DNA from: Brettanomyces bruxellensis
Lineage: Eukaryota; Ascomycota; Pichiomycetes; Pichiales; Pichiaceae
Length of the DNA: 64,000 nt
Assembly: GCF_011074885.1 (NCBI RefSeq)
Contig: NC_054683.1
Location: 186,001 to 250,000, forward strand
Direction: 5' to 3'
This document shows, piece by piece, positions 31,943-64,000 of this stretch (position 1 is the first letter of the stretch; each line of letters opens with the position of its first letter). The notes beneath the pieces were generated by a model. That model saw only the letters and a list, made by a program, of their open reading frames with translations. It made no database searches and was not told the DNA's origin. A program made the translations under genes and the position numbers.

Positions 31943-33320
31943 GGGGAAAGTAATGTGTTTTACGTATTGGCAATAAGGAACATTATACATTTTGTGGCAT
32001 ACAAGGAATGTAGGTATGTAGTTGTATGTAGTTATGACATCGAAATAGAAGCTTCTAGGTTGGGTAGATTGGTTGAATGAAATTATTGGTATGAGTTAAT
32101 GTGCAATAGTATATAGTCTTTTTGAAAACAAGACAAAACACATGCCTTAAAAATGAAAGAAAAGGTGTTGGTATTATGACGTAATAATCACCAGCAGAGT
32201 AAATTATGAAATGAAATTCCGTTAATACGATTGTGATCATGATTGATATCTATCAAACAAACCAAAAGCTGTCAAAGTTGAAGGAAAAAGCAGTGAAGTT
32301 CTAAGGAGAACAAGTCTCATTGTCTATTATACTGTATAAAAAGAGAAATGACAACTATCTAAAACTGAAGATATCCTCAGGTGTTCATACCGAAAGCTGT
32401 AGCAAAAGTTATACACTACAATCAATATCAAAAAACTATACTAAATCTGGCAATAGCAACTTTACCAGATGCAGGCATTTTATTTGACCTATCGCTGTCC
32501 AAATATCAAAAAAAAAGCATTATTGATAAGTTCAACGATCAAACTGCTATCAAAGCTATTATACCGTATGCTACTATTCCTTATGTATATCGGGAGCAGG
32601 GTCCCCTCACTTTTTTTTTTTCATTTTTTTATCGCGCACTATTGTTCTCCAAACTCTTACTCATGCGACTGATGATATCGTTACAATTATCACATTCTGC
32701 TGGGTACCTAAATAAAATTTCTTAAGATTCTGAAAAAGTGTCGGCAATTCTCATAAACAGAACAAAAAGCATCCAGCCAAATGAATGTGACAGATTGCAA
32801 TTAGACGTACCAGACTTTACTAGAAAAACAGTTCCCAATTGTTTGCACAGCCACACATGCTTCTCACCAGCCACATACAGGACTCGTGAATTCGACCGGC
32901 TCAATCTAATTACCCGAACTGAAATATCTCTTTACGAGACCAAAAAAAAAAGCACTGAAATCAGGACAGCCGAACTTTTTTTTTTAGTGGTTCCGTACAT
33001 GAATCTATAAATACTTAGGAAGGTAGGTATTCCATCTTGGGGAATTATGCCTTTTTCTTTTTTATCATTAAACTGCCATATAGTTCTTTTCATCACATTC
33101 ATTCTCTATTCAAGCTGATCGGTTAACACATCAGCCACATCACTCGATCGTGAAACAAGCACATTCTTCTAATTGCTCTAATTATTCCATAGAGCAAATT
33201 TTGGTTTCGGACTACGATATCATACAATTCACGATTAATTCTTGCTTTTACCATACCGTTCTTTCTTGTTTCGAGGATTCAAATTCATCCAAGCTTTAAT
33301 ATTACCCTATCGTGCAACAG
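31943..33320. other. DPP1/ethanolamine-kinase spacer carrying a solo LTR
   Basis: 1.38 kb without a gene. The LTR fragment is at about 32270-32490. The remainder has T runs at 32609-32620 and 32979-32988. A frame at 32381-32725 crosses the LTR and is not a gene. Confidence 0.6.
32270..32490 (+). mobile_element. Solo LTR of the copia-type element
   Basis: Starts TGTC at 32270 and runs in parallel with the 5' LTR at 58076: GTTCTAAGGAGAACAAGTCT against GTTCTAGGAAGAACAAAGTCT, then TTGTCTAT, ATATCCTC against ATATTCTCC, AAAGTTATACACTACAAT against CAAGTTACATACTACAAT, and AAATCTGGCAATA against AAGTCTGGTAATA. No element-coding sequence adjoins it, so it is a solo or decayed LTR. The right end is approximate, because similarity fades after about 32475. 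Confidence 0.75.
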
Positions 33321-57502: not shown

Positions 57503-58398
57503 GTGCTTTCATTGGTTGTTTGCGTTCTTCGACTTGTCGCCAATCGCATTATAAAAGTTCAGAATTACACAGTTGCCTTGATAGAAATAGTTACAAAGGT
57601 ACTAATAGTTTCTCGTGTTATAATTTATTTGTTTGTTGTTATTTTAATCTCTCACATATTCTTTTCATTATAAAGTGCAACGCTTTTCTTCGTTCTTCTT
57701 TTTGGTTATTGGGTCTTCTTTGTTTATTCAGCGTTCTTTTTTTAGGTAATACCGGTCGAATTCAATTTCAGGTTTTGAATTTATCTTAACTGGGATGTGG
57801 GTTGTATTGAGGTGGTAATTGTGTTATTCTGGATGGGTTTAATAGCTTTATTGGGCATCATATCTTTATTGAGCTGAACTGGAGTGAAAGCATAAAAGAG
57901 AACATATGCATGGTAGTGTTTATGCTAAAGTAATACAATTCTCAAACAATGAAACCCAACTGATAAATTATCACTTGAGATAAGCCGTATGATAAGAACT
58001 CATACTATATGAAGTGCGTACTCTCCCGCTCCGCTCGCTTAAGTATACATTTTTATACATTTCAAAAGTATCAGTTGTCCAAACAATGGAAGAATGGAAC
58101 AATAAGGTTCTAGGAAGAACAAAGTCTATTGTCTATATTGTCGTATAAGCACAAGAAAAATAACTATATAAAGATGAGATATTCTCCTGTGTCTATACTA
58201 AATTTTAGGTACAAGTTACATACTACAATAAATATAGAATTACTACACATATCGAATTACTACACAAGTCTGGTAATACCAACGTCAACGAATTTCCATT
58301 TCTCAACAGATAAGGACAAAAATTCGACCCCGACAACTTAACATCCTAATCGAAAATAAAGGTCAAGTTGGCGGCACCCCATACCAAAATATCGACCG
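57503..58398. other. PSP1 3' region and 5' part of the copia-derived element
   Basis: About 570 bp of AT-rich 3' flank without a gene, then the 5' LTR (from 58076) and a 53-bp leader before the element's ATG. The leader holds GTTGGCGGCACCCC at 58367-58380. I cannot match it to a known tRNA primer site. Confidence 0.55.
58076..58345 (+). mobile_element. 5' LTR of the copia-derived element
   Basis: Begins TGTCCAAAC at 58076, contains TATATAAAG (58165-58173) as a likely TATA box, and shares a stretch of roughly 80 percent identity by eye with sequence after the coding frame (TGTGTCTATA, GTACAAGTTA, ATACTACAAT, AATTCG). The right end is approximate. Confidence 0.7.
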
Positions 58399-60984
58399 AT
58401 GATGAATTCAAACCAAACCAACACGACCGTCATAGGTGATATGCCGGATATTACTAGGGATGAAGCAAAGACAATACTTGACATTAAAGGAGGTGATAAA
58501 ATTATTGATGCGTACCAAATTCCGTATGCAATAAGAACCATCGCTGAGAATATGGAAAGTGTGGAAAGCAAATTTCCAGTGAGAAAATTTTTAGCCATGG
58601 AAAGTGGTGACCATTGTCCAGCAAGAATTAAACAATGCTTGCAACACTGTATCAGGCTGATCTTTCCAGAGACTCTTATTAGTGATGACAATCCGTCGAA
58701 TCTCAAGGCATTCTTTCGACTCAAGAATCGATGGTGCACCGACAAACCATCTGTGGTTGTCGATGCAGTTCTTACTCTAACTGAAAGACTTGCCAACGGA
58801 AAGTCAAAGTATCCAAGAAATGATAGCGAATGCTTGGCATGGTACATGGACATTACTGGAGGAAGGTATCATCCGGTGCTAGCGTTTTATTCATACGATA
58901 AATCATCCATTAAAATGGCATTTCAGCTAAATTATATCCCAAATGATGAATCATTCTATAATATCGGAACTGCTGAAATGGTAGACATTCTCCGGTACCT
59001 CAAAAATAATGGTGACTTGAAAACTGCAAAGCAGGAACCGGAGAAAGCAATGATTGCGAAACCCTCGGATGACTCAGGTGACAAAGATGAAAAGGGCATA
59101 TCTGCCAAGGGAAGACAATACCGCGAGGAAAAGGAATTTCGTTCATTCAAGAGAAAGGATTATGTACTTACCAAATACTGTACCTGCTTCATTTGCCATA
59201 GGCAGGGTCACATTGCAAGATATTGCCGCCACAGAAATGAATATAGCGGAAATTCCTGGAATCTCTATCACAGTACCTTCCGTGAGTGTGATCCAGGTGA
59301 TTCGTTGAATCACAACTCTTACATAAAAAGCACATACAAGATACCTCGGAACTATAAAGATGTATGTGAAAGTCCCGAAAGAAGCGAGTGGGAAGAAGCT
59401 ATTCAAACTGAGATGGAAACAATGAAAGAATACCATGTCTACACCTCACTCACAAAGAAGTCAATCCCACCCACTACCTCCATTATCCCGGGGAGACTGG
59501 TTTACGATGTCAAGAATGAAGGTAATGGGAAAAAAAGTTTCAAATGCAGACTTGCTGCGAAAGGTTTCAAACTGAAGGCAAGAACAAACTACACGGACGC
59601 ATATCCAGAGGTAATAGAGCATAGTTCACTACGAATGATCCTATCGCTAGCTGCCATACATGGATTGAAGATTAAACAGGTTGATATAAAGAATGCATTT
59701 TTGAATGGAAAACTCGAAAGCACAATTTACTTCGAGCCACCAAATGAGGTCAAACAATATAATGATGAAGTATGGGAACTTCACAAGGGACTATACGGTC
59801 TTAAACAAGCTCCTTTTATATGGTATAAAACGCTACGGAGAGCACTAGAAGCACGTGGCTTTACAATGTGCCCTCATGAGCCATGCATCGCATATAGAAG
59901 TGACTGCATCATTGCATTGTATGTCGACTATCTATTAATGTGCGGAAAAACTGATAAAGTTAACACTGAAGTTGTAAAGCAATTGGAAACGCAATTTAAA
60001 ATGGAGGACCTTGGATGTCCACGGATGTTTCTTGGAATGAATATTGATATGAACGGAAACGGAATCCAACTATCATTACGAGATTTCACTCAAAGGATAG
60101 CTGATGATTTCAAAATACAGGTCAAGGACAAGAAGGTGAATCAGCCGATTAATTGTAAAGAAGATATTATGATACTCCAAGAAATGGTGGGAATCGATAA
60201 TGGAACAATTGGTATCAAAGATGAATTAAACAAGGAAGAACAAAAAAGGTATCGATCAATAGTAGGTAAACTTCAATTCATGGCTTCATTAGTCAGATAT
60301 GATTTAGCCTATGCCACCTCATTCCTTGGAAGATTCTACACAAAGGCCAATCATAAACTCCTTAAGACAGCAGAAAAGGTATTGATGTATGCGATACAGA
60401 ATAAGGAATTTAACTTGAAATATAGGAGGAATCAAACCATTAATACTGAAATTATACCTGTAACTCCTGATGATGAAGTGGAAGAATCGGGAAAAACCAA
60501 TGATTACCCGTCTCCAAATGAATGGAATCTCACAACCATAACTAACTCAACTTTCGACTCTGATACTACTAGAGCACCACAATACGGATATATGGTATTC
60601 TTAAATGGAAACATAATCCAGTGGAAAAGCAAACACCGAGCAAGACCACAAACGTCATCAGCAACAGTCGAATACGTGGTATATGAGAGGGCATACATTG
60701 ATACTTTGGGTATAAAACGCGTTCTCGAATGCCTGAACTCTGCACCAAAATATATGATAATTGCGAACGATAACATGGCTGGTTTAAAGATGTGTTCAAC
60801 ACTAGGTCATCGAGAAGGAAATAGAGATCTAGATAGGAAATACTTAGAAGTGGCAGATGCAGTCGTACTAGATAGGGAAATCAAATTGATGTACATTGAA
60901 GACGAATTTAATCCAGCACACATGTTAACCAGATCATTAAACAAAAATATATTGGAGAAAGAACTTCAAGTGATAAATCAATGA
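58399..60984 (+). CDS. Copia-derived Gag-reverse transcriptase-RNase H fusion, RT active site altered, no protease or integrase
   Basis: One uninterrupted 861-codon frame. A Gag-like N-terminal part ends in a zinc knuckle CFICHRQGHIARYC (C263, C266, H271, C276). About 50 residues later the copia RT begins (NYKDVCESPERSEWEEAIQTEM) with CRLAAKGF, VDIKNAFLNG (catalytic D429) and GLYGLKQAPFIWY. The YxDD box reads YVDY (508-511), so one metal-binding Asp is lost. RNase H follows (IQWKSK, TVEYV, NDN, DLDRKY). The protease (DSG/DTG) and integrase (HHCC, DDE) that normally lie between Gag and RT are absent. It cannot be a self-sufficient element. An intact frame with broken LTRs suggests either recent trans-mobilisation or a retained host function. 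This is a yeast retroelement and no infectious agent. Confidence 0.9.
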   Translation: MMNSNQTNTTVIGDMPDITRDEAKTILDIKGGDKIIDAYQIPYAIRTIAENMESVESKFPVRKFLAMESGDHCPARIKQCLQHCIRLIFPETLISDDNPSNLKAFFRLKNRWCTDKPSVVVDAVLTLTERLANGKSKYPRNDSECLAWYMDITGGRYHPVLAFYSYDKSSIKMAFQLNYIPNDESFYNIGTAEMVDILRYLKNNGDLKTAKQEPEKAMIAKPSDDSGDKDEKGISAKGRQYREEKEFRSFKRKDYVLTKYCTCFICHRQGHIARYCRHRNEYSGNSWNLYHSTFRECDPGDSLNHNSYIKSTYKIPRNYKDVCESPERSEWEEAIQTEMETMKEYHVYTSLTKKSIPPTTSIIPGRLVYDVKNEGNGKKSFKCRLAAKGFKLKARTNYTDAYPEVIEHSSLRMILSLAAIHGLKIKQVDIKNAFLNGKLESTIYFEPPNEVKQYNDEVWELHKGLYGLKQAPFIWYKTLRRALEARGFTMCPHEPCIAYRSDCIIALYVDYLLMCGKTDKVNTEVVKQLETQFKMEDLGCPRMFLGMNIDMNGNGIQLSLRDFTQRIADDFKIQVKDKKVNQPINCKEDIMILQEMVGIDNGTIGIKDELNKEEQKRYRSIVGKLQFMASLVRYDLAYATSFLGRFYTKANHKLLKTAEKVLMYAIQNKEFNLKYRRNQTINTEIIPVTPDDEVEESGKTNDYPSPNEWNLTTITNSTFDSDTTRAPQYGYMVFLNGNIIQWKSKHRARPQTSSATVEYVVYERAYIDTLGIKRVLECLNSAPKYMIIANDNMAGLKMCSTLGHREGNRDLDRKYLEVADAVVLDREIKLMYIEDEFNPAHMLTRSLNKNILEKELQVINQ

Positions 60985-60985
60985 G

Positions 60986-61165
60986 CACGAGAGATATCTT
61001 CTTGTGTCTATATTAAATCTTATGTACAAGTTATATACTACAATGAATGTCGAAATACTGTACAAATCCGGTAACACTAACTTGAGCACAGATGCTATTA
61101 CAAATCTGATAACATTAACTTCAATACACCAAAATTCGCCCAGATAGAACATAATTAACCATGTA
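60986..61165 (+). mobile_element. Truncated 3' LTR remnant
   Basis: Starts only two bases after the stop codon and matches the 5' LTR from about 58150 on (GCACGAG, AGATATCTTCTTGTGTCTATA, GTACAAGTTATATACTACAAT, CCGGTAACACTAAC). The first 70 or so bases of the LTR are missing, as is any TG start, so the copy cannot act as a normal 3' LTR. Confidence 0.65.
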
Positions 61166-63917: not shown

Positions 63918-64000
63918 ATGGTGGACGATACACTATACATCACACCCCACGAGACAGCACTGGCAGTTGTTGCCACGTCAATGAAGAAGGCTAGACTGCG
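63918..64000 (+). CDS. Formate/nitrite-transporter family protein, N-terminus only (cut by window end)
   Basis: Starts at ATG 63918 and runs off the window after 27 full codons (MVDDTLYITPHETALAVVAT, then SMKKARL). This closely resembles the N-terminus of S. cerevisiae YHL008C, a fungal member of the FNT family of membrane channels for small monocarboxylates or related anions. The first membrane helix would lie just beyond the window. The call rests on a short but characteristic segment. Confidence 0.8.
   Translation, partial: MVDDTLYITPHETALAVVATSMKKARL

What the first reader, a model, noticed from the sequence alone, without database searches (positions are those of the whole stretch)
58399..60984. 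Intact Gag-RT-RNase H fusion without protease or integrase: domesticated copia gene or non-autonomous element
Copia elements are ordered Gag, protease, integrase, RT, RNase H. Here the middle is missing and the flanking parts are fused in one 861-codon frame with no stop, while both LTRs are diverged and the 3' one is truncated. An inactive element this decayed would be expected to carry stops or frameshifts. The intact frame therefore suggests selection for the protein (capsid-like or RNA-binding use of Gag plus RT fold) or a young internal-deletion copy moved by a partner element.
Basis: partly seen in the sequence, partly recalled or inferred. Interest (0 to 1): 0.78.

Follow-up and report, generated by a model that had tools for sequence, protein, structure and literature searches.

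The report
Maintained dead Gag-RT-RNase H yeast gene
A yeast chromosome carries an ancient jumping-gene remnant whose shell protein is fused to a copying enzyme with altered active sites; the gene has stayed readable while relatives decayed, so the cell may be using the protein for something else.

Summary
In detail: 58399-60984 is one open 861-codon frame joining a copia Gag (1-307, intact CCHC knuckle) directly to RT and RNase H, without protease or integrase. The window lies in a 13.1 Mb yeast genome, genus Brettanomyces by its best named neighbour hit.

(2) Two database proteins (95-96% and 89% identical) share the junction and both lesions, so this is a lineage, not one odd copy. (3) No near-identical full-length copy was found in this genome; nearest pol 82% (aa), nearest Gag 48%, so the gene looks mosaic at the junction. 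(4) A 126-base deletion between GAGATAT repeats removed the purine tract and 3' U3, so the locus should not template new copies. (5) Sixteen LTR relics average 16% apart; the neutral expectation for the ORF at such an age is roughly 6-11 stops plus 6-11 frameshifts, against none seen.

Best reading: a replication-dead, selectively maintained (domesticated) fusion gene, perhaps a Gag-based restriction factor like yeast DRT2. Orthologous dN/dS and synteny could not be tested, and several amino-acid tests gave no sign of constraint.

The parts
58076..58290 (+). 5' LTR (family 'A'), full length, starts TGTCC
   Evidence: Alignment with C9 LTRs and A-type relic LTRs; best DNA relative listed in the genome 85%, nearest of 16 compared relics 16% different
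58165..58173 (+). TATA-like box TATATAAAG in the 5' LTR (promoter role inferred)
   Evidence: Sequence; TATAAA also in 16 of 24 A-type relic LTRs
58174..58398 (+). Leader; 58176-58398 has no ATG, so the ORF start would be the first ATG downstream of 58176
   Evidence: 0 ATG in 223 nt (1.6-2.9 expected from composition); 21 of 24 A-type relic LTRs carry an ATG in the matching LTR part, the C9 and C1 LTRs carry none
58399..60984 (+). Gag-RT-RNase H fusion ORF, 861 aa, intact
58399..59319 (+). Gag part (residues 1-307), full length up to just before the protease in the C9 relative
   Evidence: (47.7% over 308 columns)
59185..59226 (+). CCHC zinc knuckle, residues 263-276
   Evidence: sequence; conserved in P0001, P0003 and C9 and P0002; weak PDB nucleocapsid match 262-291, E 0.56
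59317..59337 (+). Gag|RT junction (residues 307-313), where protease, integrase and the linker are missing
   Evidence: same junction in P0001 and P0002, the latter three residues shorter
59464..60120 (+). Reverse transcriptase domain (RVT_2), residues 356-574
   Evidence: RT part mostly pLDDT 80-97 with weaker stretches; the 50 listed Foldseek hits are viral or virus-derived RTs, E from 7e-12, target TM-scores 0.29-0.57
59920..59931 (+). RT motif C, YVDY: second catalytic Asp (residue 511) replaced by Tyr
   Evidence: Asp in 45 of 48 aligned rows (two of them Gag-protease rows without RT, so 43 of 46 RT rows), Tyr only in window, P0001, P0002; C9 and C1 have YVDD
60499..60981 (+). RNase H region, residues 701-861 (bounds set by me)
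60544..60546 (+). Asn716 in place of the first RNase H catalytic Asp (catalytic role recalled from the copia motif)
   Evidence: Asp in 43 of 48 rows, Asn only in window, P0001, P0002, Pro in the two Gag-protease rows
60985..60998 (+). Deletion scar: one GAGATAT (60991) left of two; 126 bases (purine tract + U3 + TATA) lost
   Evidence: by comparison with the relic at C8:1369504-1369999, which has both repeat copies 126 bases apart
60991..61088 (+). 3' LTR remnant (R-U5 part only)
61096..61128 (+). Second LTR 3'-end-like fragment
   Evidence: read from the sequence, not separately scored

Best explanation
This is an old insertion of a copia-type element in which the end of Gag became joined in frame to the start of RT, so that protease and integrase were lost. 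The unequal divergence of its two halves suggests that this happened by recombination between element lineages (inferred). By the common ancestor of the window copy and two relatives, RT had lost its second catalytic Asp and RNase H its first. At this locus a microhomology deletion then removed the purine tract and 3' U3, so the locus should no longer be copied (deletion shown from sequence; the consequence follows from the known LTR-element cycle). The frame has nevertheless been kept open far beyond the neutral expectation, so the protein is most likely used by the host (inferred). Likely working: transcribed from the 5' LTR TATA box, translated from the first ATG, giving a Gag with RNA-binding knuckle tethered to a folded but inactive RT-RNase H. 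The most likely role is a dominant-negative capsid partner that enters and poisons virus-like particles of related copia elements (about 0.3 within this reading); RNA binding or packaging for the host is the alternative.
For: Intact 861-codon frame. Three proteins share junction, YVDY and Asn716; apart from their starts they differ in length only by 9 residues in the linker (P0001) and 3 at the junction (P0002). Relics of the same pol are broken: C8 relic 2 frameshifts and no stop in about 100 codons; C6 relic 2 one-base gaps (one at its poorly aligned edge) and 2 stops in 85 codons. Joint neutral probability of no stop and no frameshift 1e-5 at d 0.06, 4e-8 at d 0.09. Window-C9 pol dN 0.084, dS 0.72, ratio 0.12. 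At d 0.12 the window branch alone should hold about 129 nonsynonymous changes; 96 separate both branches, P 0.001. Window-P0002 replacements are more conservative than random single-base changes (BLOSUM mean 0.53 against -0.24, p below 5e-5). Changes are unevenly spread, densest in the linker (chi-square p 0.002 and 0.006, domain bounds set by me). RT fold confidently modelled. No ATG in the leader.
Against: In the last about 100 codons, window-derived changes are 4 synonymous: 10 nonsynonymous, the same ratio as in the dead C8 relic (8:19; Fisher p 1.0); the C6 comparison is likewise even (10:9 against 20:20, p 1.0). Window-P0001 replacements do not differ from random (p 0.10). Window-P0002 changes do not avoid sites conserved across copia RTs (p 0.70); Gag and pol ancestral-site tests are not significant (p 0.08-0.38). 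At d = 0.09 the total of 96 nonsynonymous changes is not below the neutral expectation (P 0.49), nor at d = 0.06. Window 5' and 3' LTRs are not sisters in the poorly resolved LTR trees, so the clock is soft. P0001 and P0002 were found because they are long ORFs. Synteny, expression and orthologous dN/dS are untested. Known yeast Gag restriction factors are subfamily-specific (PMC12530519, abstract read), while the extant Gag here is only 48% identical, so its target may be extinct.
Confidence: 0.55

Rival explanations
1. A decaying relic. The fusion served the element (or nothing), died with the family, and the window allele happens to have escaped stops and frameshifts so far.
For: Neutral-like ratio of changes in the last 100 codons; window-P0001 changes near random; no avoidance of conserved RT sites by window-P0002 changes; no target-site duplication recognised.
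Against: Neutral chance of an intact frame at LTR-derived ages is 1e-5 or less (subject to selection bias); same-family relics are broken; the two relatives are also open over their listed length, though found because they are long ORFs.
Confidence: 0.2
2. A non-autonomous mobile lineage. The fusion element lost protease and integrase and was moved in trans by an autonomous copia element; P0001 and P0002 are copies at other places, and the window copy is a later, crippled insertion.
For: Related element with a protease-type domain and an integrase-like region in the same genome, with LTRs 99.5% alike and a TTATC duplication, so recently active; loci of P0001 and P0002 unknown.
Against: One copy only found in this genome, no near-identical LTR listed; 3' U3 and purine tract gone. 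A passenger has no need to keep 861 codons with dead RT and RNase H. If P0002 is another insertion, only about 15-25 window-side pol replacements post-date the split (tallies), against about 65 or more expected at neutral LTR age, which again means constraint.
Confidence: 0.2
3. RT is not dead: YVDY still polymerises and the gene is a working RT.
For: Ty1 D211N, at the same second Asp, keeps in-vitro polymerase activity (PMC2148107, passages read).
Against: Same source: D211E and changes of the other two Asp abolish polymerisation and D211N blocks transposition; a bulky Tyr is less likely to be tolerated (inference), and RNase H has lost an Asp too.
Confidence: 0.05

Closest known systems
DRT2 of Saccharomyces cerevisiae (domesticated Ty1' gag restriction factor; PMC10951436, abstract and two Results sections read)
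   Same: Yeast copia-type (Pseudoviridae) Gag-derived ORF left intact in a decayed insertion bordered by LTR fragments at a fixed locus; [quoted passage not shown]
   Different: DRT2 keeps only the capsid C-terminal part; here Gag is complete and fused to RT and RNase H with lost catalytic residues. Restriction has been shown for DRT2 only
Ty1 p22/p18 copy-number control (PMC4599808, search listing only; PMC12530519, abstract)
   Same: A Gag-derived protein that poisons particle assembly would be the same mechanism
   Different: p22 comes from an alternative transcript of a live Ty1; here the gene is a separate, replication-dead locus
PEG10 / RTL1, mammalian Gag-Pol-derived genes (search listing only; details recalled)
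   Same: Host genes with Gag and Pol homology
   Different: Metavirus origin; as recalled PEG10 keeps a protease and makes Pol by frameshifting; here protease is absent and RT-RNase H is fused in frame
Non-autonomous LTR elements (TRIM, LARD, BARE-2; recalled)
   Same: LTR-bounded, missing genes needed for movement
   Different: As recalled, those have several copies with complete LTRs and purine tract; here one copy, truncated 3' LTR, coding frame kept

Membership tests
Ty1/copia (Pseudoviridae) element | copia-type RT | tested here: met
   RVT_2 E 3e-47
Ty1/copia (Pseudoviridae) element | Gag-protease-integrase-RT-RNase H order, complete | tested here: not met
   Protease and integrase absent. 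The C9 relative has Pol_BBD after Gag and an integrase-like region (rve E 0.13, SH3 E 0.04, below Pfam cut-offs; D24/D84/E119 counted by eye in the piece)
Ty1/copia (Pseudoviridae) element | two complete LTRs, purine tract, target-site duplication | tested here: not met
   5' LTR complete; 3' U3 and purine tract deleted; no duplication recognised by eye
Non-autonomous mobile LTR family | several near-identical copies in the genome | tested here: not met
   single copy found; nearest Gag 49%, nearest pol 83% DNA (counts are lower bounds by the tool's note)
Domesticated retroelement gene | ORF intact while family relics decay | tested here: met
Domesticated retroelement gene | locus no longer mobile | tested here: met
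   loss of U3 and purine tract read from sequence; mobility itself not assayed
Domesticated retroelement gene | same locus in related strains or species | tested here: inconclusive
   P0001 and P0002 contig lengths (5289, 8859) do not appear among the 4 PSP1 hits or the 120 of 267 listed FNT hits; only longest contigs are shown and flanks cannot be read here
Domesticated retroelement gene | dN/dS below 1 among orthologues | not testable with these tools
   Only proteins of the relatives are reachable; proxy tests mixed
Domesticated retroelement gene | transcribed and translated | not testable with these tools
   No expression data; TATA box and ATG-free leader only
DRT2/p22-like Gag restriction factor | capsid C-terminal domain fold | tested here: inconclusive
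   Gag model pLDDT 37 with a four-row alignment; not searched against structures
DRT2/p22-like Gag restriction factor | inhibits a cognate element | not testable with these tools
   needs a retromobility assay

The most novel reading that the evidence does not exclude
A host gene made from a whole copia Gag joined to a catalytically dead RT-RNase H: a pseudo-polymerase capsid protein kept by selection, either to poison particles of related elements or to carry RNA for the host.
Probability: 0.45. Interest if true: 0.72.

Novelty: new variant of a known kind. Interest (0 to 1): 0.55.

Why it matters
Domesticated Gag genes are known; DRT2 is the studied yeast case that I found. A Gag that keeps an inactive RT and RNase H as fused domains would extend this to pseudo-enzymes and would ask what a polymerase fold is good for without catalysis (RNA or hybrid binding, blocking the live enzyme inside particles). 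A B. bruxellensis reference genome is reported to hold 26 LTR elements and at least 96 solo LTRs (PMC7313668, passages read), and this genome holds a recently active relative, so restriction could be tested directly. My literature searches (open-licence PMC papers; titles and abstract starts seen) listed no report of such a fusion in yeast; one search found no paper at all.

Tried and rejected
Simple recent deletion derivative: rejected, no near-identical parent found. Viral contigs as a source of relatives: none confirmed; phage records and PHROGs: no match. Synteny by contig-length fingerprint through PSP1 and FNT searches: no shared contig length with P0001 or P0002. Another contig length, 38630, appears for both a PSP1 and an FNT homologue (P0123, P0127) and for none of the 120 listed of 378 hits of the fusion search. 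Polarised change counts with relics: no difference between window and relics. Site-conservation and ancestral-site tests on the fusion proteins: five of six not significant. Capsid fold by AlphaFold: unusable model. Species name: the passages of a Dekkera centromere paper gave no primer letters, a microsatellite search found no paper; only the genus is inferred, from the best named FNT hit, B. naardenensis, 53%. Passages on repeats in PMC6493715 did not bear on this family. tRNA genes as insertion targets: ARAGORN with the bacterial code found none in the window. The integrase of the C9 relative is not found by Pfam at E 0.01, only weakly at E 10. In the first frameshift count (18.2 expected) end-of-alignment gaps inflated the number; one search replaces it (5.6-11). 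The replacement tallies were redone on separate rows and differ slightly.

Full report
What is there. The frame 58399-60984 is real and intact. It encodes a Gag of 307 residues with a CCHC knuckle, then within a few residues the start of a copia RT (RVT_2, E 3e-47) and an RNase H. Flanks: PSP1 upstream (PF04468, ends 57502) and, starting at window position 63918, a formate/nitrite transporter gene (PF01226), then a PMT gene. The genome has 13.1 Mb in 9 contigs; neighbour searches put it in or near Brettanomyces (best named hit B. naardenensis).

Relatives in the same genome. Protein and DNA searches of G000 (counts are lower bounds by the tool's own note) give one other Gag, at C9:1880592 (48-49%), and two long pol relatives, C9 and C1, 83% identical in DNA to the window and 99.2% to each other over 3,910 bases. 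C9 has Gag, a Pol_BBD domain, an integrase-like region (weak rve E 0.13) and RT-RNase H, in split frames; C1 shows no significant Gag match in the 10 kb fetched. C9 LTRs are 99.5% alike with a TTATC duplication, so that family moved recently. Nothing near-identical to the window element was found, as would be expected of a recent deletion derivative.

Mosaic. Against C9 the pol part has pS 0.46 (dS 0.72) and dN 0.084; the Gag part has pS 0.73 (dS near saturation, 2.8) and dN 0.42 (difference in pS, chi-square p 2e-8). Amino-acid selection alone does not produce this, so Gag and pol of one of the two elements probably have different histories, with the break at or near the junction. Which of the two is the recombinant cannot be told.

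Altered enzymes. In 48 aligned rows (46 with RT, 2 Gag-protease rows) the second Asp of YVDD is Tyr only in the window, P0001 and P0002, and Asp in the other 45; the first RNase H Asp is Asn in the same three, Asp in 43 and Pro in the two Gag-protease rows. In Ty1 the second Asp to Asn keeps in-vitro polymerase but loses transposition, and to Glu blocks polymerisation (PMC2148107, passages). The window change is to Tyr; loss of transposition is near certain, loss of polymerisation likely (inference). Yet the RT-RNase H part still models as a confident RT fold and its 50 listed Foldseek hits are RTs, with modest TM-scores (target 0.29-0.57).

Relatives elsewhere. P0001 (854 aa, 96% and 95%, whole length, cluster of 14 members) and P0002 (686 aa, 89%, starting at window residue 173) have the same junction and both lesions. 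Differences: 35 of 852 and 75 of 686 positions. P0001 starts two residues earlier and lacks 9 linker residues; P0002 lacks 3 at the junction. Their loci are unknown. For scale, FNT is 99% in the nearest and 69% in the next database relative, PSP1 99% (75% covered) and 71%.

Age and decay. I aligned 24 A-type LTR relics with the two window LTRs. Sixteen of them, mostly the closer ones, differ pairwise by 16% on average (9-23%); the window 5' LTR is 16% or more from each of the 16. The two window LTRs differ at 21 of 99 sites and share no obvious derived base (my reading). The 3' LTR was shortened by a deletion between two GAGATAT copies that a relic on C8 still shows 126 bases apart, which supports that it is the original 3' LTR; but the two window LTRs are not sisters in poorly resolved trees, and no target duplication was recognised. 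Neutral expectation at d 0.06, 0.09, 0.12 (ts/tv weight 4): about 6, 9, 11.5 stops and 6, 8, 11 frameshifts; none seen. Two relic pieces of the same pol, about 100 and 85 codons, hold 4 frameshifting gaps (one at a poorly aligned edge) and 2 stops together.

Selection tests. For constraint: window-C9 ratio 0.12; conservative window-P0002 changes; uneven spread over domains, with the linker fastest and the knuckle slow (1 of 53 and 2 of 53); window-P0001 pol changes at less conserved sites (p 0.03, n 15). Against or neutral: window-P0001 BLOSUM p 0.10; window-P0002 site conservation p 0.70; four ancestral-site tests p 0.08-0.38; window-derived 4 synonymous to 10 nonsynonymous in the last 100 codons, equal to the dead relic. 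RNase H is almost unchanged between window and P0001 (1 of 161), which may be constraint or a conversion tract. Together this favours maintenance of the frame with loose amino-acid constraint. DRT2, which functions, has a reported dN/dS of 0.84 (PMC10951436, sections read), so weak constraint does not exclude a function.

Working model. Shown: intact frame, lost catalytic residues, lost U3 and purine tract, ATG-free leader after a TATA box. Inferred: expression, particle entry, restriction. p22/p18 and Drt2 act by poisoning capsid lattices and are specific to their own subfamily (PMC12530519, abstract). With 48% Gag identity to the extant element, the original target may have been the A family itself, of which only LTRs and fragments were found here.

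Noticed in passing
window 32298-32470: Another LTR relic: 71% to the window 5' LTR over 32298-32441 and 81% to the C9-type LTR over 32409-32470.
   Followed up: no
window 61096-61128: A second LTR 3'-end-like fragment directly after the 3' LTR remnant, either a tandem duplication or another relic.
   Followed up: partly
window 58176-58398: The leader has no ATG, whereas 21 of 24 A-type relic LTRs have one in the matching part and the C9 and C1 LTRs have none; loss of an upstream start could favour translation of the ORF.
   Followed up: partly
G000 C9:1880592-1885559 and C1 from 5112 upward (minus strand): Recently active copia relatives whose frames are each split at different places; real decay or assembly error cannot be told apart.
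   Followed up: partly
database contig of length 38630 (P0123, P0127): The same longest-contig length is listed for a PSP1 and an FNT homologue, suggesting that these neighbours stay together in another yeast; no listed hit of the fusion search has that contig length.
   Followed up: no
window residues 701-861 against P0001: RNase H region nearly identical (1 of 161) while the rest differs at 34 of 691 positions; possible gene-conversion tract.
   Followed up: no
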